This document shows positions 12,201 through 50,480 of a DNA stretch of 64,000 nt, one piece after another; within the stretch, counting starts at the first letter, position 1; each line of letters opens with the position of its first letter. A program made the translations under genes and the position numbers. Location: positions 17,960,278-18,024,277 of the forward strand of contig CM033114.1 in NCBI GenBank assembly GCA_019321725.1. The letters are read 5' to 3'. The stretch comes from Paulownia fortunei (taxonomy: Eukaryota; Streptophyta; Magnoliopsida; Lamiales; Paulowniaceae). The notes beneath the pieces are model-generated. The model saw only the letters and a list, made by a program, of their open reading frames with translations. It was not told the DNA's origin and did no database searches.

Positions 12201-15200
12201 AAGGCGTAGCTTATAAATATTTAATTGATAGTTATATTTTACAATGAATAATTTTTTAAAAAAAGAAATGAATGAGATCAAATTTAAAATTTTATAGTTC
12301 TTTCAACGACATAAGAAATATATATTAATTTTATATATCAAGAATAATAAAACTTTTTATAATTATACATGGTTCACAATTTACAATTGTAATTTGTAAT
12401 AAAATGGAAGAGTCAAGTTCTATTTCACATGTCATCTGTAATATTATAATACATCGTACACTTTCAGGAAAAAAAATAAAGTGAGTTATTTTCAGATGCA
12501 TTTTTTGTTATACATTAATAATATTACATAAACCTCATGATTTAAATATTGGTCTAATATTTCTTTTTTCATATTTATGCATTTTTAAAGATGACCCTCA
12601 GTGTTTGAAAATTATATGTATTTCGAACATATAAAAGTTAATTTGTACTCTTTCCTTAAATAAATATACTTGAACTTTAATTTTGATCTTTTACATATTT
12701 CTAATAATTTATACTTTTTGAAAACTATGTTTTTGTGAAAAGTCCAAAAAGTTAAGAAGAAAACAGATTTAAACTATAAACAAGAATTTATTATGACTTT
12801 CAAACAATTTTCCAACCATGTCTCATAAGCATATATAGAGAAATTCACATGATAAATTACGGTCGTTTCAAAGTTGAAAATTACGCACCACTATATTTTT
12901 ATGAAAAAGGGAATAACTTTGAAAAATTAATTGGTAGTTATCTTTTATAGTAATTAATTTTATAAAAAAATTGAAATGAATAAAATAAAATTTTAATTTT
13001 ATAATCTCTTGTAGATTAATTTTTAGATATGGAGAATAATTAGAATTTTTATAATATTACATGGTTCATAAATTTACAACTGCAAATTTTTTTAATAAAA
13101 TGAAAGACTTTAGTCATTGCAAATGACATATTTAATAGTATAATGAATTGTAAACTTTCAAAAAAAATTAAAATATGTTATTTCATATGCATGTTTTTCT
13201 TAGATAAATAATAATACAAATTTTGTATATTGTTAAACCTCATGATTTAGATTGTGGTCTAAAGATTTTTTTCATAATTATGCATTTTAAAAGATGACCC
13301 TCACTTAATGTTTCTAAAATTATATATACTAATAAAAGTACTTTATATTCTTTCCATCACTAAATTTAATTTAACTTTAGTTTTGATTTTTTACTTAATT
13401 CTAATAATTTATGCATTTTGAAAACTATATTTTTTTCCATTAGTATTCATTGTTTTCTCATATATGAATTTGCAAGTTATCTTTTAAATAATCAAGAAGA
13501 TATAATTTAATTTAAGATTTTTTATTTTAAAATACTCATTTAAAAATCTTTAGTTTTTGTCTCAAACATAAAAGTTAATCAATATTATTATAATTGATGA
13601 TTGCCTCAAAATTAAAATTTTGGTCTCCTATTTCTTTTTTAAAACTACATATAGTTTTATTGTTTTAGAAATTAAGATATTAGGTATACAATCGAAGAGA
13701 GTTTCAAAATTAAATTATTGATGATTGCCTCAAAATTAAAATGTTGTCTTCTATTTCTTTTTAAAAACAATATATGATTTTATTATTTCTAGTTTAAGAT
13801 ATTTAGTTATCAATCAAAGTGAGTTTCAAATTTGAATTTTGGCTTATCACTTTTCTCACATTTTTTTAAAGCCTAGCTTTTAATTATAATAATGGATTAT
13901 TGTCAAATATGTAAGGATATATTCTTTTGTTTTTAATTACAATTTTTTGTTTTGGGAATTTTTTATATAACAGGGCTAGAGATATATTTTACTAAAATTG
14001 CAAACCTTAGGAAAAGTGAATTCAAATAATCTTAAGTTCAAGTGTTATGATAATGATATTTACATGATTGTTAATAAAACCTTAGAAGAGATTTTAAATT
14101 AAATTTTTATATAGTGAGATTTTAAAAAAAAGATTAGATAGAATAAGACAAAGTCACTTTGTAACAATTTAATGTCTAAAAATGTATATATGCTAATGTA
14201 AGAAGAAAAATTAAAAGAGCATCATTTAATATGTACAATTTTGATATTTACGGACAAAAATCAAGTATTTCTTAACTGTATGTTAATTCAGGTACTAATA
14301 TGACATTAACTATAAAATTCATTCAACAAATTCAGCCTTCATATTTATTATGTTAAATCATTCATAGTAAGTTTAAGGGATTATTTTCACTTTGAGGTGT
14401 GAATCTTTGGCAACTAGCCCTTATTAAATAAACAATTCTTAGAGAAGTTCATTTAAAGATCAAAGTACCATATCCTTTTATTTTTGAAAAAAGGCATAAC
14501 TTATAAATATCTAATTGATAGTTATATTTTATATTAAATAATTTACAAAAAAAAAGAAATGAATGAGATCAAATTTTAAACTTTATAGTCCAGACAACGA
14601 CATAAGGAGTACATATTAATTATGTATATAAAGAATAGTTTTAATTTTTAATTTATACATGGTTCACTATTTACAATTATATAATTTTATAATAAAATAG
14701 AAGAGTCAAGTTCAATAGCATATGTTATCTTTAATAGTATAATATATAATACACTTTCAGGAAAAAAAAAGAGAAATTATTTACAGATGTATTTTTTATT
14801 ATAAATAAATAATAATACGTAGACCTCATATTTAAATGCTGGTCTAATATTTTTTTTTCTTCATATTTATGCATTTTAAAGATGGCCCTCACTTAGCGTT
14901 TTGAAAATTATATGTTCGAACATATAAAAGTTAATTTATCCTCGTTCCTTAATTAAATATACTTGAACTTATTTCTAATAATTTATGCATTTTGAAAACT
15001 TTGTTTTTATGAAAAGTTCAAAAAAGTTAAAAAGAAAACAGATTTAAACTCTAAACTAGAATTTGTTATAACTTTCAAAAATTATATTTTATTTTGCTCC
15101 TCATTAATTTTAGTTTCAATATTATATTGTAACTCCAACATCTTGTGTTTATTATAGTTTTTTATTTCTTACTTATATGAAATTATTAGACAATCTTAAT

Positions 15201-15724
15201 CAATATTAATAATAGATGGAACTTAATATAATTAAAAGAAGTAAAATAAAAATAGTAAAGGATAATTTAAATTAATAGAATTAAAAAGGGTGTACATGTG
15301 GCAAAAGTGAGTCCTGTTTAAACGGACATCCTTAAAATTTAGGAAAATCTAGACATTAGTAAATGATATTTATGACAAAACTCATGTAACGAAATAATTA
15401 GATTTAACAAAATGAAATATATAATATAAAGATTGAAACAAGAATTTAAATTGAATAGAATGTAAACAAAAAATAGAAGAACTTCATATAACATGTATCG
15501 ATTTGATATTACTTGGGTATTTTTTTTTGTTTAATTATTTATATTAATCTTTACTTATAGAAAATAAAAAATTTAGAAATACTTGAAATATTTTTGTTTT
15601 GCACTAATTAAGTATTTAAGTAATATTTCTTTATTTATAAAATTACCTTCAAACATTTTAGTTATTAACTTATATAATTAGTAAACTTCTAAGAATCACG
15701 TGCAACACATGTGCTTCTTACTAC
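9225..15724. repeat. Large AT-rich non-coding repeat family, block 1
   Basis: The same ordered set of words occurs repeatedly here and in 44140-49782: gatgattgcctcaaaattaa (11299, 11427, 13599, 13718), gttaataaaaccttagaaga (14070, related near 11780), gaaatgaatgagatcaaatt (12266, 14559), and aaaagtccaaaaa (9230, 12740). No ORF of note is present. Block 1 contains about two full tandem turns of the unit plus partial ones. Inverted copies lie at 50480-51340 and 56820-57617. The right end is a Helitron-like hairpin (15697-15724), so a decayed non-autonomous Helitron is one explanation; I see no matching 5' end in this block. Confidence 0.6.
15697..15724 (+). other. Helitron-like 3' terminal hairpin
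   Basis: CACGTG, a CAACA loop and CATGTG form a 6-bp stem with one G-T pair. Seven bases later comes CTAC, where Helitrons have CTRR. The GC-rich hairpin followed by the terminal tetranucleotide in an AT-rich setting is the Helitron 3' pattern. The last base departs from the consensus. Confidence 0.4.
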
Positions 15725-23309: not shown

Positions 23310-23477
23310 TTTAAAAAAGCTTTATATGATCTTGGTGAAATTATTAGTTTAACACCACTCTTTATGTACAGAAAACTAAAACTTGGAGAAGCAAAGCCAA
23401 CCACAGTCTTACTACAACTCGCTCATAGGTCCATTAAGTACTCAAGATGAATAGTCGAAGATATGCTGGTCAAAGTT
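23310..23477 (+). pseudogene. Element H protease, left half
   Basis: DLGE at 23328-23339 stands where the aspartic protease has DLGA or DTGA, followed by RKLKLGEAKPTTVLLQLA and VEDMLVK. The reading is cut at 23477 by the insertion of A1 and resumes at 35244. The active-site Ala is replaced by Glu, so the enzyme was probably already dead or has decayed since. Confidence 0.7.
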
Positions 23478-25089
23478 TGATAAGTGCATATTTTGACATA
23501 TTTTTATATTAAATCCTTTATACTTTTCTTGCTTTATTCTTGTTAATATTCTTGTTTTATTAATATTTTGTGTTAGGGAATAAATGGAAGCATGTTTATA
23601 GACTTGTGAAGTTTTTGTAATTTGAGCATAACTTCATGATCAAAAGCCCTATGGACTTGAAACTTATTTCATTTGAAAGCCAAGAGATAGAGGTACAACT
23701 TTTTCTTTGAAATCTTAGCCCAATTCAATTTTGATGATAGCAGAAAATTCGTCCAAGTAGTTGCACAAAATGGATCACCAAAATTCGAATCAGAGTTCAG
23801 CCCAATATTGACTTATTTTACCAATTGGGTTATATCTCTTGAGCCCAAATTTATTTTGGGCAAAAATTTGGATATGTTATACCCAAGAGGTAAATAAACA
23901 AGTTTTTGGAAGACAAGATGGTGTGAAAATGTATCAAAATGGTAAAAACATAGGCTGCAATTTGCTGCTGCTGTTAAAGGGCGGCTCTTGGACATGACTC
24001 GGTAATTTGACCATATCTCCTTCATCCGACTACCAAATTTGACAAGAGATATATGAAAATATATCAACGCCAAAAAATCTACAATTTTAATTCTTCAAGT
24101 ATCTTCAAAATCTGGCTGTATCTGACCAAAAAATATAATTTAATTCAGTGGGTGAGAAATTTATGTAACAACTTACCAACTCTTGGCAACTAGCATTCCA
24201 CTTGATTAACCCCTCCATTATTTGTTTGGCCTCTAGCTTACTCCAAGTACTATAAATAGGTCATGTATTAAGCTTGTAAGAGGAAGGGGGTAGATGGTTT
24301 CTTTAGGCTAAGTTATCTAGTTTGTATGTTTTCTAGTATTGTAAGTTTTCGAGTAGTAATAGAAATGCATTCTCTAGTTTATCTTATATTTTTAGTCTTT
24401 GCTACTTTTATTATGTCTTTCTAAATTTCATTTTGTTGAGGAAAAAGAGTGAACCTCTTGATGGAGGAAGATGAATGGTTATAAGGGTAGAAAATATTTA
24501 AGTATGTCGTATTATTATTTTTATTTTTGAACAAAACCCTACTTGTTTTGTGGTGATTCTTGATTTATGTATCTCCAATGGCACAAAAAATACTTGAGTT
24601 CATTTAGCTTATTGTACAGTTTTACCCCACCAACTACTAATGTGAAACCTTGATTTGTTGTTGACGAAGGTGTGCATAAATGCTTGATCCCATAAATAAG
24701 TGTTGGTGTTAAGAGATAATTTGCAATAGTAAGACAATATCATGATTACCTTATTGCATGAGTTATTTGATAATATCTTCCATTGGAACCTTCATTATGT
24801 ATGGATTCCAATTATGGCAATTAATAGAGGTAAAAATAAATAAATAATCATTTCTCTATCCAAAACTCAAGAGTGGATCCCTAATCCTCACTACTTTTAT
24901 TACTTCGGTTTTTCTTTAGTTACAGCATACATTAATTGTTCATATATTTTGATTCACATAAACTCCATCTTTTTAGAAATATAAACTTGAATTCTTCAAA
25001 CAACTTCCCTGTGGATCGACCTCGGACTCACAAGAAATTTATTACTTAATACAACCTGCACTTGGGTTTGCAACCTTAAAGTTGTAACA
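23478..25089 (+). mobile_element. A1 5' LTR (1612 bp)
   Basis: Starts tgataagtgcatattttgac and ends gttgtaaca. Matches 33629-35238 and 57618-59174 along its full length. A TATA box lies at 24251. Confidence 0.9.
24251..24260 (+). promoter_or_regulatory. LTR TATA box (A1 5' LTR)
   Basis: tataaatagg, conserved at 58358 in the A3 LTR and altered to tataattagg at 34402 in the A1 3' LTR. It probably marks the start of R about 30 bp downstream. Confidence 0.6.
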
Positions 25090-25095: not shown

Positions 25096-25112
25096 TTGCG
25101 CCTTTGCCGGGG
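25096..25112 (+). other. A1 primer-binding site (tRNA-Asp)
   Basis: ttgcgcctttgccgggg, two mismatches to the complement of the plant tRNA-Asp 3' end. Confidence 0.8.
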
Positions 25113-25187
25113 AAGGCAAGGTAAGTATTTAGGTCTGTTAATATTTTTCCTTTGAAAATATAGTTTGTTTATTTTCTTTATAGATAT

Positions 25188-26820
25188 ATGGTTATATGGT
25201 ATCGTAGTCATAATTCTCGACGTTTAGTAAGAAATAATTCCGAAACTTTGTTTGGAAATTTATTTGAATCATCTCCACACACTTCCACCATAGCTGAAAA
25301 TGAAAGTGTCAAGGATGAAAATGAGAATCAACAAGTGCGTACCATGCGTTATTACTTGCAACCTCTTTGAAATTCTTCTCCTTCTTGTTTTATTTTTTCT
25401 CTAAATGCAAATAACTTTTGATTTAAGTCAGGTATGATCCCTTTACTTCCTAATTTCCATGGTTTAGACTCTAAAAGCCCTTACTTGCATTTAAAAGAAT
25501 TTGATGAAGTATGTGCCACTTTTGATGATCAAACTTGCACAAATGAGATTGTTAAGCTCAAATTATTTTTTTTTTCTTTAAAAGATAAAGAAAAAATTGG
25601 CTTAATTCTTTGAAACCTAGGTCAATTGGCACTTGGCAAGAAATGCAAGCTGAATTTTTGAAAAAATTCTTTCCAACTCATAAAACTAATGCTTTGAAAA
25701 GACAAATTCAAAATTTTTCTCAAAATTCGAATGAAGCTTTCTTTCAATGTTGGGAAAGATTTAAAGATTTGTTGAATTCATGCCCACATCATGGTTTTGA
25801 AAATGACGCTTAATTAGTTTCTTTTATGAAGGTTTAGCTTCCGAAACAAAATAATTTGTTGAAACAATATGTAGTGGTGAGTTTCTTGATAAAGAACCTG
25901 ATGAAACCCTAGAATATCTAGATCATTTGATAGAAAACTCTTAATCATGGCATAGTGGTATTTCTTCCGAAGGTTCTATTAGATCTAATCTTGCTAATAG
26001 TAATAAATAAAAATATTATCTTAGCCAAGAAGATGATCTAAATGCTAGGCTTGCTAGTTTAACAAGAAAAGTTGAAGCCATGGAATTTTAAAAAGTAAAG
26101 GAAATCAAATCTGTGTAAGAGGAAGAAGTTTGTAGTAATTGTGAACTTTTGGGGTACTCAACCAATGAATGTCCAAACATTCCAGTACAAGCAAATTTTA
26201 TGAACACATTCAAAAAACCTTTACATTCTCCATATTCTGAAACTTACAATCCACAATGGAGAAATCATCCCAATTTCAGTTGGCTAGATGATAATCATGC
26301 CCAACCACTGCATTCACAAAAACCGCCACACTTTCATTCTTATCCAGCTTCACATACAAAATCCATTGAGGAGACTTTGCAAGCATTTATACATGAACAA
26401 ACAAAGACTATTCATCCCAAGGAGAAAGTTTTTAATCCACCTCCAGAAATGAAAAATAAAAATAGTCTTGACGACGAAGGTAAGTTTGAAGAAGGTAAGC
26501 GTGAAAATGATGAAAAACAAAAATATTTACCTACAGTTTCTCAAAGATTGCAAGCAACTCAGAAATTGAACTCAAATGCTGAAATTTTTGAAATTTTTAA
26601 ACAAGTAAAGATTAATATTACATTGTTGGATGCAATCAAGCAAGTTCCACCTTATGCCAAATTTTTGAAAGATTTGTGTACAATCAAAAGAAAACATCAT
26701 GTACAAAAGAAGGAATTTTTAACTGAAAGTGTTAGTTCAATCATTCAACAATTCAATCCATCTAAGTACAAAGATCCAGGTTGTCCAACCATTTCATGTA
26801 TCATAGGAAACACTAGAATA
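25188..26820 (+). pseudogene. A1 gag
   Basis: Starts at an ATG shared with A3 (MVIWYRSHNSRRLVR). The capsid-like part contains HLKEFDEVCATFDDQT, WQEMQAEFLKKFFPTHKT and FFQCWERFKDLLNSCPHHGF. The zinc knuckle at 26131-26172 reads C-x2-C-x4-Y-x4-C: the expected His is Tyr (codon at 26155). A 209-bp segment present in A3 (60492-60700) is missing after 26405. In-frame stops lie at 25811, near 25941 and near 26008, among others. Confidence 0.8.
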
Positions 26821-27200
26821 GAGCGTGCTTTGCTTGATCTAGGTGCTAGTATAAATCTTTGACCTTTCTTAGTTTATGAACAGTTAGGTTTACGAGAACT
26901 TAAAACAACTTCTGTTGTATTCCAACTAGCTGACCGTTCGATTAAAGTTCCAAAGGGAATAGTAGAAGATGTGTTGGTACAAATTGATAAGTTTTACTTT
27001 CTAGTTGATTTCATTGTTTTGGACACAGAGCCTGTTGCACAAACACATACACAAATTCCTAGCATTTTGGGTCGTCCTTTTCTTGCAACTTCAAATTCTT
27101 TGATCAATTGTAGAAATGGTATTTTGTAGTTATCATTTGGAAATATGACTTTGGAACTAAATGTGTTTAATGTTTGTATACAACCTGCAGAAGATGTCGA
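26821..27200 (+). pseudogene. A1 aspartic protease
   Basis: Active-site motif DLGAS at 26836-26850 in the context ALLDLGASINL, followed by VYEQLGL, GIVEDVLVQIDKFYF and ILGRPFLAT. A stop just after the motif (26861) and another at 27127 break it. Confidence 0.8.
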
Positions 27201-27488
27201 AGTACAGAAAGTGGATTCAATTGAGGAACTTGTTCATGAATACTTTACTACTACTAACTCTTCAGATTCTTTGGAGACTTGTTTTAAAAGTGAAAATATT
27301 TGTAAAAAGGCACACACTAATACTATCTCTGAATTTTTGCAGGTATAAGAAAAATATTTTTGGAAGCCAAGGTTTGAAGAACTTTCATCATCAACAGTAA
27401 AATCTATTCCATCAAGTATTAAAGCTCCCGTGGTTGATTTAAAACCTTTGCTAATTAATACAAACTCGATGCATCTCAAGAAGATAAG

Positions 27489-28960
27489 TTGATCAAAACT
27501 CTGAAAATACATAAGAATGCTTTAGGATGGACCATTACTGATATTAAAGGTATTAATCTTTTCATTTGCACACATAACATCTATCTAGAGGAAAATGCTA
27601 AACCTTCTAGAAAAATGCAACGAAGGCTAAATCCTAATATGAAAGAAGTAGTGAGAAATGAAGTCATTAAACTCTTAGATAATGGAATTATTTATTCTAT
27701 TTCTGATAGCAAATGGGTAAGTCCTACTCAAGTTGTACCTAAAAAATCTGTAGTTACTGTAGTCAAGAATGAGAATGATGAATTAATTCCAACTAGGACT
27801 GTTACTGGTTGGCAAATGTGCATTGACTATAGAAAATTCAACTCAGTTACTAGAAAATATCATTTTCCATTACCTTTCATGGATCAAATTTTAGAAAGAG
27901 TTGCGGGACACGAATTTTATTGCCTTTTAGATGGATATTCTGGGTATAATCAAATTGCAATTGCACTTGAAGATCAAGAGAAAACAACTTTTACATGTCC
28001 TTTTGGTACTTTTGCATATCAAATGATGCCTTTTGGATTATGTAATGCACTAGCTACATTCCAATGATGCATGCTTAGTATTTTTAGTGACATGGTTGAA
28101 TGTTTTTTCTTTAAGTCCTCATAGATGATTTTTCTGTTTTGGGTAATTCATTTGATGATTGCTTATCTAATTTAGAAAAGGTTTTGATGAGGTGTGAATA
28201 AAAAAATCTTGTGCTCAATTGGGAGAAATGTCATTTCATGGTAACAACTGGTATTGTTCTTGGACACATTATATCATCAGAAGGTATTGAGGTTGACAAA
28301 TCTAAAATTGAGTTAATTGCTAATTTGCCAACACCAAAGACTGTGAAGGAGATTAGATCATGTTTAGGACATACTGGTTTTTATAGAAGATTTATCAAAG
28401 ATTTTAGTATAATATCTAAACCTTTGTGTAATCTTCTAACAAAAGACACTATTTTTGAATGAACTGAAAACTGTGAAAATATTTTTGTTAAGTTTAAAAT
28501 CATGCTTACGTCTGCTCCAATCATGCAGCCTCCAGATTGGACTTTACTTTTTGAAATAATGTGTGATGCTAGTGATTATGCTATTGGAGCTGTCTTGGAA
28601 CAAAGAAAAGATAAAAAACCATATGTTATTTACTATGCAAGTAAAACTTTAAATGATGCTCAATTGAATTATACAACAACTGAAAAAGAATTACTTACTG
28701 TAATTTTTGCATTGGACAAATTTCGATCTTATCTTGTTGGCTCACCAATTGTTATTTTCAGTGATCATGCCGCTTTGAAATATCTTTTGTCAAAAAAAAA
28801 AAGATGCTAAACCAAGAGTGATTAGGTGGATTCTCTTACTCCAGGAATTTAATGTTACTATTCGAGATAAAAATACAGTAGAGAATGTAGTGGCTGATCA
28901 TTTGTCAAGACTTGTTTGTGATGACTCGTTTCAAACCACACCTATTAATGACACTTTCCA
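27489..28960 (+). pseudogene. A1 reverse transcriptase and RNase H
   Basis: RT fingers and palm: WVSPTQVVPKKS, CIDYRKFNSVTRK, HFPLPFMDQILERV, LDGYSGYNQIAIA, TTFTCPFGTFAYQMMPFGLC (27489-28067). The catalytic FIDD box near 28118-28129 is out of frame because of one extra base, and a stop lies at 28066. The thumb follows (VKEIRSCLGHTGFYRRFIKDFS, about 28340). RNase H at 28502-28920 shows CDASDYAIGAVL, YTTTEKELL and FSDHAALKYLL, with a stop after an A run near 28806. Wording and order are those of the Athila lineage. Confidence 0.85.
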
Positions 28961-29029: not shown

Positions 29030-30256
29030 AAGATGACATCGCATTGGAACTCTCAAGATAAAAAGAAGTTTTTGACTGGGGTTAAAAAAATTTATTGGGA
29101 TGATCCATACCTATTCAAATATTGTCCGGATCAAATCTTTTGAAGATGTGTGCCTGACAATGAGATAGGTAATATTATCAAATTTTGTCATTCAGAAGCA
29201 TGTGGTGGTCATTTTTCTGTAAAGAAAACTATTGCAAAAATCTTGCAATGTGGATTTTATTGGCCAACTCTTTCCAAAGACACTTACACTTTTTGAAAAA
29301 ATTGTGAAAATTTTCAAAAGTTAGGGTCCCTTTCAAAGAGAAATATGATGCCCCTACACCTTATCCTAGTGATTGAAATCTTTGACTGTTGGGGTATTGA
29401 TTTTATAGGGCCATTTCCATTATTATTTGATTTTCTTTACATATTGGTTGTCATAAATTATGTTTCAAAATGGATCGAGGCAATTCCTTGTCAAAACAAT
29501 GATCACAAAATAGTGATAAATTTTTTGAAAGAAAATATTTTAAGTCGATTTGGAATTCGTAGATCTATTATTAGTGATGGGGGAAAATATTTTTGTAACA
29601 AAGTTTTCAGAACTTTAATGAGGAAATATGGAATCATACATAAAGTTGCAACCCCTTATCACCCTCAGATAAATGGACAAGTTGAACTTGCAAATAGGGA
29701 GATAAAACAAATTTTGTAGAAAATAATTAACCCAAATCGTAAAGATTGGTCTCTTAGACTTACCGATACACTTTGGGCATATAGAACTGCTTTCAAAACA
29801 TCATTAGGCATGTCTCCTTATAAGATAGTTTATGGAAAACCTTGTCATTTACCTGTTGAACTTGAACATAAAGCCTATTGGGCAATCAAAATGTTTAACT
29901 TCAACCTTGATGAACCTTTAAAATTGCGCAAATTACAAATCAATGAACTTCAAGAACTGAGAAATAATGCATATGAGAATTCTAAAATTTATAAAGCAAG
30001 AATCAAAGATTTTCATGATAATAAAATTTCAAGAAAAATATTTGAGGTTGGTCAAAAAGTTTTGCTTTATAATTCTCGATTGCATTTGTTTCCTGAAAAA
30101 TTGAGATCAAGGTGGAATGGTCCTTTTGTGATTGACATTGAGAATCCTAGAAATTATAACATATTCAAAGTAAATGGACAAAGAGTTAAACCATTTCTAG
30201 AAAATCAATTTTCACAAGAGGAAATTATTTTTCTTTCTAACCCTTGTTATGATTAG
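29030..30256 (+). pseudogene. A1 integrase
   Basis: The N-terminal zinc-binding part (CHSEACGGHFSVKKT, then NC near 29303) is broken by a stop. The catalytic core shows D at 29399 (GIDFIGPFP), D at 29576 (ISDGG) and E at 29684 (GQVELANRE), with 35 residues between the last two: a complete D,D-35-E triad. The C-terminus runs from [15 protein letters not shown] to a stop at 30254 and keeps the WNGPFVI motif. Stops at 29296 and 29717 inactivate it. Confidence 0.85.
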
Positions 30257-30437
30257 TGTTATATATACTCATTTTCTCTGACATTTTTTTTTCTTTTATT
30301 TTTTTTCTTTTTCCTGTTAAATGACGGATAACAGTACTCCGTGGCTATAAAATTCGGACTTGTCAGTTTCCCAAACAACTGAAATTTTGTACAAATTTTC
30401 TTTGCTTTTCTCATTCTCTTTTCTTGTTCTTTTCAAA

Positions 30438-31005
30438 ATGGGTGACATTTTTCTTACTCTCAAGAAGCGATTTTCTTTTCTTCCTAAAAATAAAATTTTA
30501 AAAATTTATAAAATCAGGATTGAAAGATTGAGGATGCTTATACACAAGGGCATCTCGGAGGACATACGATGGATAATTGAAGCAAATGTAAGGGCATGTG
30601 AGTTTTCACATGAGTTTCCAGATTTGCTTACTAGATACATGTCTGGTTTTGGTAAAAACACATATTCAAAAAAAATGAAGGGCGAAAAAAATGAAAGTTT
30701 GTCATATTTGTGCTAGATGGACTTGCAACACAACGTTTCATTCTTTAGGAATGGTCTCTAAAAATCGAGAAGATAAACTTAAATTCATTATAGATGGGGT
30801 GAGTAAGGAGTCTTTAGATCACATTATATTGACTCTTGAGACGCATTCATGTGGATTAGTACAACGTGCAATTCTTGATTTATGGGATTATTTTCAAAAT
30901 GAATATAATCTTTATAGTCTTGGGAATCTTATTAAAAGACCCTTTTTACCAGTTTATAAGAAAATTGAATGGGAAGTATGTCCTCGACCCATAGAGGGCG
31001 TTTAA
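30438..31005 (+). pseudogene. A1 extra ORF of unknown function between integrase and LOG
   Basis: Starts MGDIFLTLKKRFSFLPKNK. After about 82 codons the frame slips at a run of seven A (30685-30691) and continues as KVCHICARWTC, then about 90 more residues (SLDHIILTLETHSCGLVQ, AILDLWDYFQ, RPFLPVYKKIEWEV) to the stop at 31003. One base change in the A run would give about 190 continuous codons, far longer than chance in DNA this AT-rich, so it was once a real ORF. The CxxC...WxC cluster suggests metal binding. I do not recognise the family. It could be an element gene or part of captured host DNA. Confidence 0.55.
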
Positions 31006-31209: not shown

Positions 31210-31874
31210 TTTCAAAAAGAAAAAAAAAGAAAGTTTCTTCAACTGGCAAATTTAATTCCATTTGTGTTTTTTGTGGATCCAATTTTGAAAAAAAATGGTG
31301 AGTTTATAGGGGCAGCCAATAACTTTGGTAGAACTTTAGCAGAAAGAAAAAATCATTTAGTGTATGGGGAAGGCAATTTGGGATTAATGAGGAGTGTTGC
31401 TATTTCTGCTTATGTAGGAGGTGTCAAAGTTCTGGAAATTATCCCAAAATCTTTAACAGTATAGAATATCACAGGTATGATAATTGGAGATGAGATAAAA
31501 GTATCACATATTCAGGATAAAATGCCTAACATGTTAAATAATACGGATGCATTCATTATTCTACCTGGCGATTTTGGTACACTGGAGGAATTATTCCAAG
31601 TTGTCTTTTGGGCGCAACTCAACATTCACCAAAAACCTATAGGTATTCTTAATGTTAATGGTTTCTATGATGGTTTGCTATCTTTTGTAGATCATGCTGT
31701 GAAAAAATATTTTATTTCAACTTCTGCGAGAAGAATCATTATTTCTGCTCCGACACTTGAACAGAACCTGATCTAGCATATGTGTCAGAACCTGATCTAG
31801 CCTTGGCCAATGTGGATTGGTCCAACAGGAACAATGGTCGAAAACATAAATTGAATTTGACTCTCAGTCTGTGA
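31210..31874 (+). pseudogene. Captured LONELY GUY (LOG) cytokinin riboside 5'-monophosphate phosphoribohydrolase, retro-pseudogene
   Basis: LOG enzymes cleave ribose-phosphate from cytokinin nucleotides and so release active cytokinin in one step. The sequence covers nearly the whole protein without introns: SICVFCGS (31257-31280), GRTLAERKNHLVYGEGNLGL, IIPKSL, ITGMIIGDEIKVS, TDAFIILPGDFGTLEE (PGGxGTxxE signature at 31564-31590), WAQLNIHQKPIGILNVNGFY, FISTSARRIIISAPT and the C-terminal LANVDWS to a stop at 31872. Lesions: frameshift in the A run near 31288, TAG at 31462, a short duplication of cagaacctgatctag near 31763-31800, Gly to Asp in the signature, and no start codon. Plant LOG genes normally have several introns, so this looks like a cDNA copy. 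It lies inside A1, upstream of the polypurine tract, in sense orientation. Confidence 0.88.
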
Positions 31875-32106: not shown

Positions 32107-33617
32107 ATCAAACATGTTTTTTTTATGGGTCCATTGAAAATATGAAAAATGGTGGCTGAGTAAAGGGTAATTGTAACACTCTTGAGACACATTCCTATTT
32201 TTTGCATAACATGGTAGGTTTGTGAAGTTTTTAACAAATGTTTGTGAATTACCAATTATTTTTTTGAGTCGTAGAGGTTATCCCAACTTCAATGATTAAA
32301 ATTAACCATGAATAATATGGTTTGATTGATAATGGGTGTTGTTTTGGACTTTGATGTTGTTATTTAGTTAATATATTTTTGCGATAATTATACTCAAATT
32401 TTGTTTTGCACAGATAGTTATGTTATTCAGTATGAAGACAATCATGTTAAAATAGATAGTTCTTATGCCCTTGCTCTAATCATTACTTGGATCTTCAACA
32501 TGTGGGGGTTGAGTATTATAATTTTTACTTTTGGTCTATCGAGGCAAACGACTGATAGTGCACCACTAGAAAAATGATTAAGGCATTAGGCTTTCTAGCA
32601 CCATTGCCAAATCAGCTTGTTCTCCATATGATGTTTCAAGAAAACATCCCCTTAGTAAACCACTTTGAGCCTTACAATAAATAATTTTTTTTGTAACCAT
32701 ATCTTTTTACCTAACCTAAATACACTATTATCCAACCCTTGTTCTAAAAATGATTGGAGTTTAAGACACATTCAATTGTCAGCTTGAACTTACAAAAGAA
32801 ATTCAGGTTGGAATAGAAGATAAGTGTGTGGGAGTTTCTCTTAAAAAAAAGAACAAAAAAAGAAAAAAAAAGAAAAAAAAAACAATAATAAAAAAAAAAG
32901 AAAAAAATTGCAAAGTGCTACAAGTTGCAACTAAAAATGAGTTGTTGCAAGATGAATAAGAGGGGTTCAATTCAATAACAATAGACCCCAATGTGAAATT
33001 TGTGGAGTTTGAGAATTATTTATCGATAAATTATTTATCTCTAATTTTATGAAATTTTTAGAACCTTTGTTGCATCCTATCCTTTTATTTATTAGCTACA
33101 TCACCACCCTTTGACCCCATTACAACATTTGTTAAAGACATTTTGATTTGGTGTGGTGCCTTCAGTGTAGTGGAGATTTGCACCAAAGGAAGAACCTATG
33201 ATATTTAACTTTTCTGTTAGAGATTGGGTGATGTTTTTGTAAGATTTTATGAGAATTCACTTATTTGAAGCATGCATAGTTTTATCACTATTGACATTAA
33301 CTATCCACACACACACTTGAGTATGCTTATTGTGGAAATGCATTGATTTTTGAATGACTAAGAGTTAAACTCAACACTTGTTTGATTTTATTTCCATATT
33401 ACTTTGTTCCTTCATGAGAATAAAAGTTGGAAGATAGTTATTATAGGTGTTTGTAGGTATCACTGCTGGAAACCTTCACGAGACTATAACTCGTCCTCTA
33501 TGGGCCACCTAGGGGTTTAAAGGCTTGTTGCATATGCTAAATGCAATCGTGATTTCCTACGAAAGTGGATTAGTTATATTTGTTTTAGGCTTGCTTGAGG
33601 ACAAGCATGGGTTAAGT

Positions 33618-33628
33618 GTGAGGGAATT
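33618..33628 (+). other. A1 polypurine tract
   Basis: gtgagggaatt directly before the 3' LTR start TGATAAG, in the position needed for plus-strand priming. Confidence 0.7.
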
Positions 33629-35238
33629 TGATAAGTGCATATTTTGACATATTTTTATATCAAATCCTTTATACTTTTCTTAATTTATTTTTGTTAATAT
33701 TATTGTTTTATTAATGTTTTGTGTTAGGGAATAAATGGAAGTATGTTTTCAAACTTGTGCAGTTTTTGTAATTTGAGCATAACTTCATGATCAAAAGCCT
33801 TATGGACCTGAAACTTATTTCATTTGAAAGCTAAGAGATAGAGATACAACGTTTCTATTGGAAGCTCAGTCCAATTTGATTTTGACAATAGCAGAAAATT
33901 CATCCAATTAGTTGCACAAAATGGATCACCAAAATTCAAATCAGAGTTCAGCCCAGTATTGACTTATTTTACCAATTGGGTTATATTTATTGAGCCTAAA
34001 TTTATTTTAGGCAGAAATTCGGATATGTTATACCTAAGAGGTAAATAAACAAGTTTACGGAAGATAAGATGGTGTGAAAATGTGTTAAAATGGTAAAAAC
34101 ATAGGCTGGAATTTGCTATTGTTGTTAAAGGATGGCTCTTGGACATGACTCGGTAATTTGACCATATCTCCTTCATCCGACCGTCAGCTTTGACAAAAGA
34201 TATATGAAAATATATCAGCGCCAAAATATTTACAATTTTGATTCTTCACGTATCTTTAAAATCTGGCTGTATCTGACCGAAAAATGCAATTTAATTCAGT
34301 AGGTGAGAAATTTATGTAACAACTTACCAACTCTTGGCAACTAGCATACCACTTGATTAACCCCTCCATTATTTGTTTGGCCTCTAGCTTACTCCAAATA
34401 CTATAATTAGGCAAGGTATTAAGCTTGTAAGAGAAGGGGGGTAGAGGGTTTTTTTAGGCTAAGTTATCTAGTTTGTATGTTTTCTAGTATTGTAAGTTTT
34501 CTAGTAGTAATAGAAATGCATTCTCTAGTTTCTCCTATATTTTTAGTCTTTGCTACTTTTATTATGTCTTTCTAAATTTCATTTTGCTGAGGAAAAAGGG
34601 TGAACCTCTTGATGGAGGAAGAGGAATGGTTATAAGGGTAGAAAATATTTAAGTATGTTGTATTATTATTTTTATTTTTGAACAAAACCCTACTTGTTTT
34701 GTGGTGATTCTTGATTTACGTATCTCCAATGGCACAACAAATACTTGGGTTTATTTAGCTTATTGTACGGTTTACCCCACCGACTGCTAATGTGAAACCT
34801 TAATTTGTTGTTGACGAAGGTGTGCATAAATGCTTGATCCCATAAATAAGTGTTGGTGTTAAGAGATAATTTGCAATAGTAAGACAATATCATGATTACC
34901 TTATTGCATGAGTTATTTGATAATATCTTTCCATTGGAACCTTCATTATGTATGGATTCTAATTGTGGCAATTAATAGAGGTCAAATAAATAAATAACCA
35001 TTTCTCTATCCAAAATTCAAGAGTGGATCCCTAATCCTCAGTATTTTTATTACTTTGGGTTTTTTTAGTTACAACATACATTAATTGTTCATATATTTTG
35101 ATTCACATAAACTCCATCTTTTTAGAAATATAAACTTGAATTCTTCAAACAACTTCCCTGTGGATCGACCTCGGACTCATGAGAAATTTATTACTTAATA
35201 CAACCTACACTTGGGTTTGCAATATTAAAGTTGTAGCA
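33629..35238 (+). mobile_element. A1 3' LTR (1610 bp)
   Basis: Same ends and length as 23478-25089, with scattered substitutions and small indels, so the insertion is not very recent. The TATA box is altered (tataattagg, 34402). Followed by the target repeat aagtt. Confidence 0.9.
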
Positions 35239-35243
35239 AAGTT

Positions 35244-35380: not shown

Positions 35381-37150
35381 CAATAGGAGCAAGTCACTTC
35401 AACCTCTTCAAGTTAATGAAATATCTTAATGAAAAGGATAGTTGTATGTGAGTAGATACTAGCAATGAGTGTGTTAAGAAAGTTTTCCATTCCAACTATC
35501 CAGTAGATCCTCTTGAGGCATGTTTGAGGGGAGATACTAAAACGGGTGATATAGAGGTCATTGAGTATTTAAAGATTCTTGATGCTTCACCACCTATGTT
35601 CATCAAAAAACTATTTGAAGATCTTAACAAAGCCCTTACACGTCTAATACCTTTTATAGAAAAACTACCTACTCTATAGCTTAAGCAGTTGCCAAACCAC
35701 TTGAGGAATATATTTTTAGGTAAATCTTATACTCTTTTTTTTATTATTTCTGCTACATTGAAGGATGAACAAGAAGAGAAACTACTAAGGGTACTAAAAG
35801 AACATAAGACAACAATAGGTTATTGTTGACATCAAAGGCATTAGTCCTTCTATATACATGCACAATATCTTAATGGAGGACAGTTACAAGCCTTCTGTGG
35901 AGCATAATTGTCATCTCAATTGAAATAGAAAAGAGGTGGTAAGAGCTGAGGTGTTGAAACTAATCAATGCATGTATTATCTACCTTATTTCATATAGCGT
36001 TTGGGTAAGTCTTGTGCAAGTGGTACCCAAAAAAGGTAGGATAACTATGGTAGAGAATGAAAATAATGAATTGATTCCTACTAGGACAGTTAATATGTGG
36101 CATGTGTGCATGGACTGTAAGAAGCTGAATAAGGTTACTAGGGAAGACCACTTCCCTTTGCCCTTTATTGATCAAATGCTTGATAAGTTAGTTGGTCATT
36201 CTTTTTACTTCTTCCTAGATGGTTATTCTTGTTACAATCAAATTTTTATTGCACCTAAGGACTAAAAAAAACCACTTTCACATGTCCATATGGCATATTT
36301 GCCCTTAGGTGTATGCCATTTAGCTTGGGCAATGCACCATCTACTTTTCAGCGATGTATGATGGTTATATTTTCTGATATGGTGGAATACTTCATTGGAC
36401 TTTTTACAGATAAATTTTCAGTTTTGGGGGATTTCTTTTGATGTTTGTATCTAGAATTTCACACTTATGCTTAAAAGGTGTGAAGAAACCAACTTGGTTC
36501 TTAGGAGAAGTGTCACAAGTAAATCGTGCCAAGATTGAGACCATTGAGAAAGTTATCAACACCCACTTTAGTGAAAGAAGTTCAGAGCTTTCTAGGTCAT
36601 GTGGGGTTTTATAAACATTTCAACAATGACTTTTCTAAGATCACTAAGCCTCTTTTGTAATTTTCTTATGAAAGAGGTACCCTTTAAATTTGATGATGCA
36701 TGTCTTTGTGCTTTTCAGTATTTGGAATTTTCTTTGATATCTACCTCCATTACTATTGCACCTAATTGAGATTTACGTTTTGAGCTTATATATGATGCTA
36801 GTTACTTTGCCATTAGAGTAGTGTTAGGATAGTAAAAATGTAATTTTTTTTATGTAATATGTTATGCTAGTCGTATACTAACTGATGTGCAGATGAACTA
36901 CGCCATGACTAAGAAGGAACTCCTAGCTGTGATATTTGCCTTTAACAAATTCAGATCATACTGGATTGGCATGAAGGTGATAGTCTACATTAACCATTAT
37001 ACTATAAAGTATTTGATTGAGAAGAAGGATGCCAAACTTAGGTTGATTTGACAGTCTTAGTATTCTAAGAGTTTAATTGGAGATTCAAGACAAGAAGGGA
37101 ATAAAAAATATCATTGCTGATTATTTTTCTCGGTTGATGAACAAGATGTC
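35381..37150 (+). pseudogene. Element H reverse transcriptase and RNase H
   Basis: The longest open piece is 35936-36265, with VQVVPKKGRITMVENENNE, DHFPLPFIDQMLDKLVGHS and LDGYSCYNQI. The catalytic box near 36403 reads FTDK where FMDD or FIDD is expected, so the second Asp is lost. RNase H follows ([30 protein letters not shown]-like end near 37120). Many stops. Confidence 0.75.
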
Positions 37151-44133: not shown

Positions 44134-47060
44134 AAATGTATAATTGAACTTTAACTATTTTTAAAAATATAATTTGAATATAATTATAAATGTCCTTTTA
44201 TATATCAAATTATTTTTCAAAAACTAGAAGTCTATCTTTTTCTTTTTATTGAAACTCTTTAAATAGTTTGAATTTCAAATAAAATCAGTTTCATAATAAA
44301 TTAGATCTCAAAAGATTTCCAGTCATATCTCATAAGCATATATAGAAAAATTCATATGAGAAAATCATTGTCATTTAAAGTTGAATATTATGCATAACTT
44401 TATATTAAAACATGATATTTTCTCAACAATTTGATATATTTCTATTATGATTCTAGAGAAAAATGAAAGACGAATTTACAGTAGAAATAAAAAATAAAAA
44501 TAAAAGTTAATTCTAGAAGCTTTGTGCTAAATAAAAAGTAAATGGTTTTAAGATAAGCAAATTATAATATGCTATCAAAAGTTAGAGTAAAAGTTATTTA
44601 CTCTTAAGTTTTCTCGTTAATGTTTGTCTATGTTTTTTTTGTAGGATGGATATATCCTTTTAACATTTTACATCCTAATTTCAATCATCAATTTAATTAT
44701 TTTTTCATGATACATTCTTTTGATTTAATAAATTAATAATTATGACAATATAAACTTAAAATTGAAGAATAACAAATATACTAAAAAAATGTAAATTCTT
44801 ATACTCAAATAAAAAATTAAAAATTAAAATAGACATATATGATAGCTATATTTTTTTAATTAATGAGATGAGAAAGAAAAGAGTCCAGATAAATTACAGT
44901 ATTTTCCTACCATATTTTGTTTTATTTAGGCCTTATCTATGAAAAGTCCAAAAAAGTTGGACAGAAGAAGAAGAAGAAAGAGCAAACAAATTTGTGGTAC
45001 CAAAAAAATATCACTTTTAAACTCTAAATAAAGAGTTATTATGACTTTTGCAAATCTTATTTGATATCTCACATAAGTTTTAGAAAATAATATATTTTTT
45101 CAAAGCATATTATAATCTCAATCTCTTTTGTTCTATCATAAAAATTCTATTTCTTATTTATAAGGAGGTATATTATTAGAGAATTTAAAATCTATATTAT
45201 CAATAGATAAAATTTTAATTAACTAAATGAAACATAACTTAAATAATTTAAATAAAAGTTAAAATAAATATAACAAAAATGGTGTGAATGTCATTGTAAG
45301 AAATTTAGAAGAAGAATTAAAATACTTTTATTCAATATTTAGCAATTTGATATTTATAGTAAAACTCGGGTGTCACTTAAAAATAACACCCTTAAAAATT
45401 ATAAAAATTCAGGTACCAATATGATATTTATGATATAATTTAGGTAACAAAATAGTATAATTTACAAAATATAATATAATATAAAAAATTAAAACAAGAA
45501 TTAAAATTGGATAAAGTTAAAAGTGTGTATATGCCATTATAAGAATAAAAATTAAAAGAACTTCATTTAGTATGTAGCAATTTGACATTACAGCAAAACT
45601 CATATTTTTCTTAAACTATATATTAATTCAAGTACCAATGTGATATTTGCGGCGAAAATTCATTTAATAAATTTAACTTTAAAGTTTACTATGTTAAATC
45701 ATAAATCATAAAGAGTAAGTTTAAGAGGTTATTTGTACCTTGAGGTTTGAAGTTTTGGCAACGACATTCCCACATTTGATTAAAAAATCTAAGAGATTAA
45801 AAAATCAAAGTACCATTCCCTTTATTTTTGAAAAAATGGTGTAACTTTTTAAAAACTAATTGGTAATCTTTCATAGTAAAAGATTTTATAAAAAAATGAA
45901 ATGAGTAAAATCAAATTTTAAATTTTGTAGGCTCTTCAACGACATAAAGAGTATAGATTAATTTTTTATATATAAAGAATAATTAGAATATTTATAATTA
46001 TACATGGTTCATAAATTTACAACTGCATAATTTTTAAAATAAAGTGAAAGACTCAAATTCAATTGTAAATGTCATACTTAGAGTATAATAAATTATACAC
46101 TTTTAGGAAAAAAATTCAAAAGGAGTTATTTTCACATGTAATTTTTTCATAGATAAATAATAATATATATTATGTATAATATTAAACTTTATGATTTAGA
46201 TTCTGGTCTAATGATATTTTTATAATTATGTATTTTAAAAGATTACCCTTAGTGTTTTTAAAATTGTATATATTTCAAACATATAAGACTAATTTATATT
46301 CTATCATTCAGTGTTTTTTTCTTGATTCTAATAATGTATGCATTTCAAAAACTATATTTTTTTCCATTAGATTCATTATTTTCTCAAATCTGAATTTGCA
46401 TGTTCTCTTTAAATATCCAAGAAGATAGAATTTAATTTAAGTTATTTTTTTATTTTAAGATATTCATTTAAAAAACTTTAGTTTTTGTCTCAAGCATAAA
46501 AGTTAATCAATATTATAATAATTGATGATTGCCTCAAAATTAAAATTTTGGTCTCCTATTTCATTTTTAAAACTATATATAGTTTTATTATTTAATAAAT
46601 TATTTGGTATACAACCAAAGAGAGTTTCAAAATTTATAATTATTTATGATTGCCTCAAAATTAAAAATGTGTCTTCTCATTCTTTTTTAAAACTATATGT
46701 AATTTTATTATTTACAAAATTAAGGTATTTAGTATTTAATCGAAGAAAGTTTTAAAATTTGAATTTCGGCTTATCACTATTTTTCAATATTTATTTAAAA
46801 CCTGACTTTTAATTAAAATGATGGATTATTATCATATATATTAGGTTCTTTTCTTTTGTTTTTAAATAGAATTTACTTTTGGAATTTTGTCATAATAGAG
46901 CTAGAGATATGTTTTACTAAAATTACAAACCTCAATAAAGGTTAATTCAAATATTTAAGTTCAAGTGTTGTGATAATGATATTCACATGATTGTTAATAA
47001 AACCTTAGAAGAGATTTTAAATTAATTTTTTATATATTGAGATTAAAAAAAATAAACAAA

Positions 47061-47688
47061 TGTCTCGCCTCGGGCCCACGGGGTGGGTACTCAGAAGCGA
47101 GACATAGCACAACAGGCTTTGTTAACAACTACTTTATGTTCGTCCTTACCTTACAAAAATAGTATATCGAAGTTGCTAGAAAAGTCCATTGTACCCACTT
47201 ATAAACCGCTAAATATCATTTCACAACCAATGTGGGATATCACAATCACCCCAATTAGACATGCGACGTCCTCGCTTCTGTACCCAATCACCCTCCATTG
47301 GACATGCGATGTCCTCGTGTCCGTACCCAATATACAATCTAAATATCCTCACATAACCAATGTAGGATATCAAAATCACCCTCTATTGGACATGCGACAT
47401 CCTCGTCATGTTCCTTCACAATCTAAGACTGTCCCCGGATCCCAGTACATAATAGATCGGACCTCCCACACTGGTAGTACCCCGAGGTTGGCTCTATACC
47501 ATTGCTCATGCCTCGGGCACATGGGGTGGGGGCCCGAAAGCGAGACCTGAAACAATGGGTTCCACTAGCAACTACTTCACTTTCATTCTTGCTTTACGAA
47601 AATAGTTAACCAAGTTGCTACAAGAGTCTATTTTACCCATTTATAAACCACTCTAAATATCCTCTCACATTCAACGTGGGGTATCACA
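47061..47688 (-). mobile_element. TRIM-type miniature LTR retrotransposon
   Basis: Terminal direct repeats at 47061-47244 and 47503-47688 (about 185 bp, TG...CA). On the minus strand the first LTR is followed by tggtatagagcc, the tRNA-iMet primer site with one base missing, and the second LTR is preceded by the purine tract attggggtgat. The interior is 258 bp and repeats the word ttggacatgcgacgtcctcg three times. No coding capacity. The target duplication is not clear. Confidence 0.75.
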
Positions 47689-47740
47689 ATAAGGGAAAAT
47701 CATTATGTAATAATTTAAAGTCTGAAAGTGTATATATGCT

Positions 47741-48103
47741 ATTGTAAGAAGAAAAACTAAAACAACATCATTTAATATGTAACAATTTTGACACTTATGG
47801 CAAAAGTCAAGTATTTATTAACTGTAGTTTAATTTAGATACTAATATGACATTCATGGTAATAATTCATTTAGAAAATTTAGCCTTAAAGTTTACTATAT
47901 TATATCATGCATAGTGGTTTAATTTAATATTGTAAGAAGAAAAACTAAAACAACATCATTTAATATGTAACAATTTTGACACTTATGGCAAAAGTCAAGT
48001 ATTTATTAACTGTAGTTTAATTTAGATACTAATATGACATTCATGGTAATAATTCATTTAGAAAATTTAGCCTTAAAGTTTACTATATTATATCATGCAT
48101 AGT
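47741..48103. repeat. Perfect 175-bp tandem duplication
   Basis: 47741-47915 and 47929-48103 look identical by eye over all 175 bases, with a 13-bp spacer. It lies in AT-rich block 2, where other repeats are diverged. Confidence 0.9.
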
Positions 48104-49916: not shown

Positions 49917-50040
49917 ATATACTATGAGATAAATGTTGTTGTATACGGGACCATGATCAACGGACTTCGCAAGTCGGGTAACATCGCAGTGGCCATTGAA
50001 CTGGCATCACACCTGATGGAAAAGGCATCACACCTATGTT
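49917..50040 (+). pseudogene. PPR relic, third copy
   Basis: ttgaatatactatgag matches PPR copy 1 near 2373 and is joined directly to aaatgttgttgtatacggga, which matches 2582-2600; about 190 bp between them are missing. It continues NGLRKSGNIAVAIEL, as in the paralogues, then ends at a short atggaaaaggcatcacacct repeat and a stop. A small fragment left by deletion. Confidence 0.8.
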
Positions 50041-50480
50041 AGCACTATTAGAGTAGATGCTCAATGCGTCAATTGGATTGTGTGTATTATACTTTTTTTC
50101 TTTTGTAAAGATAATTTTATTGAAAATCGTATTGATAAAAAAATATTTTTTTTATCTTATGTCTTCCATCATTTATTTTTGCACATTAGATAAAGTCCTT
50201 AAATCAAATTTAGTTACGGGACATGATCGCGCATATGATGGCAATCATGGAACATGCTTATAAGGCTTTGACCTTAAATAAATTCTGAGTCGAGAGTTTT
50301 TTTAGATAGGATCAAATAGTTCAATAAGACTTGCACATACGATGCATGCTCGTAAGATGAGGATGTCGCATTTTATTGACATTAGCATAAAAACACAAGT
50401 GCATGTATGTGGGTGCTTATTAGGGAACACATACATGGAATATAGTCCACAAGAAATTCTTAATTAGAGGTTTTGCCTGT
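50041..50480. other. Unassigned sequence
   Basis: No feature seen apart from ordinary AT-rich text between the PPR relic and the inverted repeat block. Confidence 0.35.

What the first reader, a model, noticed from the sequence alone, without database searches (positions are those of the whole stretch)
31210..31874. An Athila retrotransposon carries an intronless copy of a plant LOG cytokinin-activation gene
Between integrase and the polypurine tract of A1 lies almost a full LOG protein-coding sequence, in sense orientation and without introns. It is recognised from ICVFCGS, LVYGEGNLGL, the PGxxGTLEE signature and the whole WAQLNIHQKPIG..LNVNGFYD block. Plant LOG genes have introns, so capture through RNA is the simplest route (template switching during reverse transcription, or retroposition into the element). 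If other members of the family carry it intact, the element could spread a growth-hormone gene. Here it has a TAG, frameshifts and Gly to Asp in the signature, so this copy is dead.
Basis: partly seen in the sequence, partly recalled or inferred. Interest (0 to 1): 0.88.

Follow-up and report, generated by a model that had tools for sequence, protein, structure and literature searches.

The report
Retrotransposon family carrying cytokinin-activating gene
A very abundant plant jumping-gene family carries, as resident genes, an enzyme that activates a plant growth hormone and a second protein resembling one used by plant viruses against host defence; the copy in this window is a dead one, but many copies elsewhere in the genome look intact.

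Summary
In detail: window 31227-31874 is an intronless, sense LOG (LONELY GUY) coding sequence between integrase and 3' LTR of a Ty3/gypsy, Athila-type element, and this copy is dead. The genome matches Paulownia fortunei.

LOG is a resident gene of the family, not a private capture: in 29 of 29 other copies examined a second ORF, a spacer and LOG lie in the same order. A genome search gave 2,486 first-look candidates; of the best 150, scored, 115 have no stop inside. Some copies have intact LOG and 99% identical LTRs.

TE-LOG proteins from Paulownia, Rehmannia, Orobanche, Populus, Reevesia, Diplodiscus and Xanthoceras form one clade, sister to plant LOGs and apart from bacterial ones. One old acquisition is favoured; the parent gene was not found and the RNA route not shown.

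The second ORF, about 184 aa, matches flexivirus cysteine-rich proteins (Carla_C4, Viral_NABP), which papers describe as silencing suppressors, one inducing hyperplasia.

LOG-domain gypsy elements were already reported for Citrus and Populus. The pairing, breadth and single clade were not met in ten paper searches. Within Paulownia I found no recent selection on LOG.

The parts
23478..25089 (+). 5' LTR of the element (TG...CA); 5-bp target duplication AAGTT at 23473-23477
25096..25113 (+). primer binding site; six other copies read TGGCGCCGTTGCCGGGGA, which I recall as tRNA-Asp type
   Evidence: tRNA type recalled
25117..25126 (+). possible 5' splice donor (AAG|GTAAGT), cut at 25120|25121, just after the PBS; present in 7 of the 7 stretches in which the PBS pattern was found (this copy and six others), of 16 stretches tried
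   Evidence: use as a donor is inferred
27459..28067 (+). reverse transcriptase piece (PF00078)
28463..28810 (+). RNase H piece (PF17919, PF17917)
29297..30256 (+). integrase in two open pieces (rve, PF00665, in the first)
30346..30352 (+). TATAAAA about 90 bases before the CRP-like ORF; a TATA match present in 27 of 29 copies aligned there
   Evidence: promoter role inferred
30438..30994 (+). CRP-like ORF (basic stretch plus C-x2-C-x4-C-x3-C), frame broken in this copy; relatives are mostly 180-184 aa
31169..31178 (+). AATAAATATC, TATA-like, about 50 bases before the LOG start; present in 29 of 30 copies
   Evidence: promoter role inferred
31227..31874 (+). LOG coding sequence, dead in this copy (start codon lost, frameshifts, TAG 31462-31464, changes at R98 and G115 of L004 numbering)
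33612..33628 (+). polypurine tract region before the 3' LTR
   Evidence: by inspection
33629..35238 (+). 3' LTR; target duplication AAGTT at 35239-35243

Best explanation
The window holds one decayed member of a very abundant Ty3/gypsy, Athila-type LTR-retrotransposon family of Paulownia whose order is LTR, gag-pol, CRP-like gene, LOG gene, LTR. LOG is an accessory gene that an ancestor of these elements acquired once, from a plant LOG lineage, early in eudicot history or with later transfer between hosts; it has been kept as a full-length protein with its active-site motif. The most likely way it works: LOG and the CRP-like protein are made from subgenomic RNAs (spliced from a donor after the PBS, or from their own TATA boxes). 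LOG then releases active cytokinin from its riboside monophosphate in the cell where the element is expressed, favouring dividing, meristem-like cells in which the element can copy itself and reach the germ line, while the CRP-like protein acts on silencing or host transcription. Shown here: anatomy, copy number, shared junctions, intact copies, LOG and CRP-like homology, single TE-LOG clade. Inferred: enzyme activity, expression, benefit to the element, timing, RNA capture.
For: Own genome: 2,486 first-look candidates, the best 150 scored, all over the Pfam cut-off, each covering at least 117 of 131 profile positions, 115 of 150 without a stop inside (my count of the table). Junctions: in 8 of 8 loci, 20 of 20 loci taken at steps down that list, and the second element of the window followed into its flank (L009), the CRP-like ORF, spacer, LOG and downstream region lie in the same order; integrase precedes them in 27 of 29 (not in L017 and L021, whose CRP-like ORF is also cut short), and the LTR follows in all 22 loci that reach that far. 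LOG without stop or gap in 20 of 30 copies. LTR pairs in 11 of the 14 elements tried give K2P 0.0037-0.044. LOG model pLDDT 85.7; TM-score to 2a33 0.96 by target and 0.77 by query length. R98 kept in 29 of 30 and E120 in 30 of 30 copies. TE-LOGs are one side of a branch, 100/100 against 22 plant LOGs, and sister to plant LOGs at 98/92 with 33 bacterial LOGs present (bootstrap not settled); Paulownia groups with Rehmannia plus Orobanche at 100/99 (likewise not settled). A Xanthoceras gene model joins LOG to a stretch 53% identical over 43 residues to window 26119-26862. A Rhamnella protein joins an integrase C-terminus, 71% identical over 108 residues to this element's, to the CRP-like domain. 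CRP: 47 of 49 relatives match Carla_C4 and 46 of 49 Viral_NABP at E 0.01; none of nine shuffles nor the reversed sequence hits either family.
Against: Within Paulownia, variants shared by two or more LOG copies have N/S 2.21 against a neutral expectation of 2.33 and 2.02 for singletons, so no recent purifying selection is seen; the test is weak, since integrase shows none either. Pairwise dN/dS of intact LOG copies is 0.49 overall but 0.87 outside the HMM-scored part, and the sample was drawn from HMM-ranked hits, which favours intact copies. Both copies met by position rather than by score (window, L009) are dead. The CRP-like ORF is free of stops and frame-breaking gaps in only 8 of 30 copies, and its tree does not place Paulownia with Orobanche: Paulownia is closer to Xanthoceras (70%) than to Orobanche (61%). 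Other-species LOGs are known here only as proteins; their place inside elements is supported for Xanthoceras (a gene model) and by print for Citrus and Populus. The plant LOG sample was chosen by similarity to LOG3 and LOG8, so a closer host subfamily could be missing; the long stem of the TE clade also invites long-branch error. No expression or enzyme data.
Confidence: 0.68

Rival explanations
1. Passenger: LOG was captured and is carried along with no benefit to the element; intact copies are simply young.
For: No recent selection signal in Paulownia; dN/dS outside the scored region 0.87; dead copies exist, among them both copies met by position.
Against: The sampled relatives compared are 56-68% identical to the Paulownia protein; 107 of the 120 listed are 215-218 aa long and 99 of 120 have the PGGxGTxE motif, over several plant orders. 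A neutral passenger would not keep this over such divergence. The gene and its order are shared by 29 of 29 other Paulownia copies.
Confidence: 0.2
2. Repeated capture: elements in each plant lineage took up a local LOG gene independently.
For: LOG genes are found in many plants; gene capture by plant elements is described in print (listing only); the two Malvaceae genera, Reevesia and Diplodiscus, do not group together in the tree.
Against: All TE-LOGs sampled form one group against plant LOGs (100/100) with a long stem, and the CRP-like partner is found in several of the same hosts.
Confidence: 0.1
3. The enzyme serves another end: nucleotide housekeeping for reverse transcription, or destruction of a nucleotide immune signal, rather than cytokinin activation.
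For: LOG belongs to a wider nucleotide-binding fold (LDcluster4 hit; the nucleosidase PpnN); specificity cannot be read from sequence, and the prokaryotic LOG equivalog cut-off is not met.
Against: Closest solved structures are LOG-type proteins and the signature residues are kept.
Confidence: 0.15
4. Lone insertion: the LOG sequence at this place is a host retrocopy that landed in element A1.
For: Lack of introns.
Against: 29 of 29 other copies share both junctions with the element; no target duplication was noticed at LOG's edges.
Confidence: 0.01

Closest known systems
Gypsy LTR-retrotransposons with a YgdH (LOG-type) domain in Citrus sinensis, C. clementina and Populus trichocarpa (PMC9289625, citing Steinbauerova et al. 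2011)
   Same: A LOG-type domain as an extra domain of a plant Ty3/gypsy element; Populus LOGs fall in the same clade as the Paulownia ones.
   Different: In the passages I read, that report names the domain in a survey only; its main text has no occurrence of carla, NABP or nucleic acid binding, and those passages do not treat Lamiales or Malvales members, copy number, intactness or a tree. The 2011 paper is not held and was not read.
Orchid Ty3/gypsy (Ogre) elements with an m6A RNA demethylase domain (PMC9289625)
   Same: A host-type enzyme domain fixed in a plant gypsy element.
   Different: Other enzyme, other lineage, orchids (title and passages seen).
Plant LOG cytokinin riboside 5'-monophosphate phosphoribohydrolases (AtLOG3, AtLOG8)
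   Same: Fold, PGGxGTxEE motif, conserved Arg; 46-48% identity.
   Different: Intronless, in a mobile element, separate clade; host LOG genes mostly have 7 exons (peanut family, passage in PMC13257298).
Cysteine-rich proteins of plant flexiviruses (carla-, allexi-, mandariviruses)
   Same: Basic stretch followed by a cysteine cluster; Pfam Carla_C4 and Viral_NABP above or near curated cut-offs.
   Different: TE protein is about 182 aa with its own N- and C-terminal parts; I had no viral sequence to align, so cysteine spacing was not compared; direction of gene exchange unknown; activity not tested.
Athila / Calypso elements with an env-like ORF after pol (recalled; Wright and Voytas 2002 seen only as a reference)
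   Same: Extra ORFs between integrase and the 3' LTR.
   Different: In the ORFs listed for that region I recognise only the CRP-like gene and LOG; no env-like protein was specifically searched for.

Membership tests
LOG (type I) cytokinin-activating enzymes | PF03641 domain over its whole length | tested here: met
   intact copy P0001: E 6.3e-38, profile 1-131 of 131; window copy only in part
LOG (type I) cytokinin-activating enzymes | PGGxGTxxE motif and conserved Arg | tested here: met
   alignment and per-copy counts; the window copy has lost both
LOG (type I) cytokinin-activating enzymes | NCBI equivalog cut-off for the enzyme model NF058542 | tested here: not met
   117.4 bits against a cut-off of 300; the broader TIGR00730 subfamily is met (172.2 against 96.35). 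The library serves bacterial and archaeal annotation; no plant LOG was run as a control.
LOG (type I) cytokinin-activating enzymes | releases cytokinin base from its riboside monophosphate | not testable with these tools
   needs an enzyme assay
Ty3/gypsy LTR-retrotransposon | LTRs, target duplication, RT-RNaseH-integrase order | tested here: met
Athila lineage | tRNA-Asp-type PBS and extra ORF after integrase | tested here: inconclusive
   PBS read, its tRNA type is recalled; extra ORFs present
Athila lineage | place in an RT/INT tree; no additional RNase H | not tested
   no reference elements were at hand; only pieces of pol were scanned
Flexivirus CRP / nucleic acid binding protein | Pfam Carla_C4 or Viral_NABP over the curated cut-off | tested here: met
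   L004 copy: Carla_C4 25.4 bits, cut-off 20.9 (Viral_NABP 20.4, cut-off 23, not met); at E 0.01, 47 and 46 of 49 relatives. The window's own two broken pieces gave no hit to either at E 1.
Flexivirus CRP / nucleic acid binding protein | silencing suppression or transcription factor activity | not testable with these tools
   known for viral proteins (PMC12172455, passages); unknown here

The most novel reading that the evidence does not exclude
A clade of Athila-type plant elements has carried, across several eudicot orders, a two-gene cassette made of a virus-type silencing-suppressor or transcription-factor protein and a cytokinin-activating enzyme, and uses it as a plant virus would: to quiet silencing and push the expressing cell toward division, which favours copying and passage to the germ line.
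Probability: 0.25. Interest if true: 0.93.

Novelty: new variant of a known kind. Interest (0 to 1): 0.74.

Why it matters
If the proteins act as their relatives do, a selfish element present in what look like thousands of copies makes a plant growth hormone and counters host defence. That would give a direct test of whether retrotransposons manipulate host development, as some viruses do. It also matters for annotation: proteins such as the Populus 'LOGL10' and many 'hypothetical proteins' of Paulownia, Reevesia and Orobanche are likely element genes and would distort LOG gene-family counts. The CRP-like protein raises the question of gene exchange between plant RNA viruses and retroelements.

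Tried and rejected
Bacterial origin of LOG: bacterial LOGs reach 50% identity, as high as plant LOGs, so I tested it; TE-LOGs are sister to plant LOGs at 98/92 with 33 bacterial rows (34 were chosen by hand from the 80 loci returned, 75 of which gave a usable frame; one of the 34 did not enter), so it was dropped.

Structure of the CRP-like protein: the model was too poor to use (pLDDT 57.5, pTM 0.28), so no fold search was made.

Viral contigs: LOG alone gave no relative, the CRP alignment gave none, the LOG alignment gave one 42% match on a 38-kb contig, not followed.

Recent selection in Paulownia: not detected for LOG; told under evidence against.

Contig-length coincidence: one CRP-like and one LOG protein are both listed with a contig of 8,723 bases (P0127, P0121), but other equal lengths can only be chance, so I do not use it.

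Not done because the genome search did not answer again: an unbiased sample of copies, a hunt for family members without LOG, and the host LOG genes with their introns in this genome.

Literature: searches (ten, the cap). Only PMC9289625, among the papers opened, ties a LOG-type domain to retrotransposons; in the listings no title or abstract start ties Carla_C4 or Viral_NABP to retrotransposons. Read as passages only: PMC9289625, PMC7264820, PMC6317226, PMC12172455, PMC13257298. Every other paper: listing only. The library states that it holds no bioRxiv preprints.

Full report
What is there. Window 31227-31874 on the + strand is a LOG coding sequence. Its open pieces match PF03641 (E 2.6e-26) and Arabidopsis LOG structures. 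It lies between integrase (29297-30256) and the 3' LTR (33629-35238) of an LTR-retrotransposon whose LTRs are 93.2% identical and which is bounded by the 5-bp duplication AAGTT. RT, RNase H and integrase are in the Ty3/gypsy order; the tRNA-Asp-type PBS that I recall as usual for Athila is present, but the lineage was not tested by a tree. This LOG copy is dead: no start codon, frame-breaking gaps, an in-frame TAG, and changes at the conserved Arg and in the PGG motif.

The genome. The genome search places the window in a 509-Mb assembly at G000:C10:17960278-18024277. LOG proteins 95-97% identical to the intact copy P0001 are listed as Paulownia fortunei hypothetical proteins; two lie on contigs whose lengths (24,664,501 and 27,090,522) equal those of C6 and C4 here, so the genome is very likely that assembly.

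LOG is a family gene. The genome search gave 2,486 first-look candidates for PF03641; only the best 150 were scored, all over the cut-off, and 115 of these 150 (my count of the table) have no stop inside the match. I examined 8 of 8 loci returned by that search, 20 loci taken at steps down the list, and the second element of the window followed into its flank (L009, 87-91% identical to the first for most parts). In 29 of 29 the CRP-like ORF, a spacer of about 230 bases, LOG and the downstream region occur in the same order and at the same junctions. Integrase was found before them in 27 of 29; L017 and L021 lack it and have a shortened CRP-like ORF. The LTR follows in all 22 loci that reach that far; L001-L007 end before it. 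LOG is free of stops and frame-breaking gaps in 20 of 30 copies, window included; the CRP-like ORF in 8 of 30. Because the loci were drawn from an HMM-ranked list, the share for LOG overstates intactness; the two copies met by position (window, L009) are both dead. Fourteen elements were tried for LTR dating and 11 gave a pair: K2P 0.0037 to 0.044, or 0.14-1.7 million years at an assumed 1.3e-8 per site and year, against 0.069 for the window element.

The protein. An intact natural copy (P0001, from L004) is 217 aa, matches PF03641 over its whole length, is modelled with pLDDT 85.7, and fits Arabidopsis LOG 2a33 with TM-score 0.96 by target and 0.77 by query length. R98 is kept in 29 of 30 and E120 in 30 of 30 copies. 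The NCBI LOG equivalog model is hit below its cut-off, the broader TIGR00730 above it.

Relatives. A protein search returned 4,465 hits, which must include ordinary LOGs; the best 120 are listed and include Rehmannia, Reevesia, Orobanche (clusters with up to 328 members), Populus, Diplodiscus and Xanthoceras. In 99 of these 120 the PGGxGTxE motif is found. A Xanthoceras gene model joins two LOG pieces through a stretch 53% identical over 43 residues (E 1e-7) to the gag-pol region of this element, which supports LOG lying in such an element there too. In a tree of 64 proteins the TE-LOGs lie together (99/96 without the Xanthoceras fragment, 95/68 with it), and Paulownia groups with Rehmannia plus Orobanche and one unnamed protein (100/99), as the hosts do; the two Malvaceae genera do not group (bootstrap not settled). 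Without the outgroup, 15 TE-LOGs are one side of a branch against 22 plant LOGs, 100/100. With 33 bacterial LOGs, TE-LOGs are sister to plant LOGs at 98/92 (bootstrap not settled). So the donor was of plant type, but none of the sampled LOG1/3 or LOG8 lineages, which include a gymnosperm, is the parent. The plant rows came from one search seeded with LOG3 and LOG8, so a closer subfamily may be missing, and long branches may mislead. Plant LOG genes mostly have 7 exons (peanut family, passage in PMC13257298); absence of introns in the element therefore fits an RNA route but does not prove it.

The second gene. The ORF before LOG (30438-30994) has 348 relatives at E 0.001 or better, 120 of them listed. 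Of 49 aligned, 47 match Carla_C4 and 46 Viral_NABP at E 0.01, best 1.7e-7 and 1.1e-8; nine shuffles gave no hit to any family, and the reversed sequence hit only an unrelated one at 0.0013, so matches near 0.001 deserve no trust by themselves. The broken window pieces hit neither family. The ORF has a basic stretch followed by four cysteines; the cysteine pattern is found in 106 of 120 relatives. A Rhamnella protein joins an integrase C-terminus, 71% identical over 108 residues to this element's, to this domain, and members are listed for Xanthoceras, Acer, Populus, Rhamnella and Orobanche. The tree of 24 CRP-like proteins is poorly resolved and does not join Paulownia with Orobanche, so co-inheritance of the two genes is not shown by trees. 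Viral proteins of this kind suppress RNA silencing, and that of chrysanthemum virus B acts as a transcription factor that induces hyperplasia (passages in PMC12172455).

Expression signals. A strong splice-donor-like site follows the PBS in 7 of 7 stretches where the PBS pattern was found, out of 16 tried. A TATA match lies before the CRP-like ORF in 27 of 29 copies and a TATA-like motif before LOG in 29 of 30. The copies are close relatives, so this conservation is no proof of use.

Selection. Pairwise dN/dS among 20 intact LOG copies is 0.49: 0.36 inside the part scored by the HMM and 0.87 outside. Variants shared by two or more copies have N/S 2.21, near the neutral 2.33. So I find no recent selection on LOG within Paulownia; integrase shows none either, so the test has little power. 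For the CRP-like ORF shared variants have lower N/S than singletons (1.60 against 3.29, Fisher p 0.04, one of four tests, uncorrected). The case for long-term constraint rests on full-length proteins, 56-68% identical to the Paulownia one among those compared, across orders.

Prior work. PMC9289625 reports the YgdH domain in gypsy consensus sequences of two Citrus species and, with a looser filter, Populus, and refers to Steinbauerova et al. 2011 and to LOG proteins. The older paper is not held. I therefore class this as a new variant of a known kind: the LOG-type domain in gypsy elements is known, while the pairing with a CRP-like gene, the extension to Lamiales and Malvales, the single clade, and the number and state of copies were not met in the ten searches made.

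Verdict. Observation confirmed. Interpretation right in its core, but the gene is old and family-wide, the parent and the RNA route are open, and a second accessory gene changes the picture from a chance capture to a two-gene cassette whose use is untested.

Noticed in passing
57618-63997, continuing in L009: Second member of the same family (about 90% identical to the first), running off the window; its LOG has stops at codons 17, 96 and 130 and its CRP-like ORF is broken.
   Followed up: yes
2282-3807 and 54143-55729: Two copies, about 92% identical, of a gene whose translation looks like a pentatricopeptide-repeat (PPR) protein; family name by inspection only.
   Followed up: no
9272-15299 and 44965-51385: Large related repeat blocks, mostly at 65-87% identity and in both orientations, with units of about 2.2 kb at 10616-12809 and 12919-15083.
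   Followed up: no
47740-48111: A 188-base unit in two tandem copies, 98% matching.
   Followed up: no
35924-36265: Reverse-transcriptase-like ORF of a more distant element just past the 3' LTR; 36002-36516 is 68% identical at DNA level to 62068-62585; RT by inspection.
   Followed up: no
25117-25126: Splice-donor-like site directly after the primer binding site, in the place of a retroviral major donor.
   Followed up: partly
P0078, P0014, P0015, P0060: A Populus protein annotated 'LOGL10' falls in the element clade, and Xanthoceras gene models fuse LOG pieces; such annotations may inflate host LOG families.
   Followed up: partly
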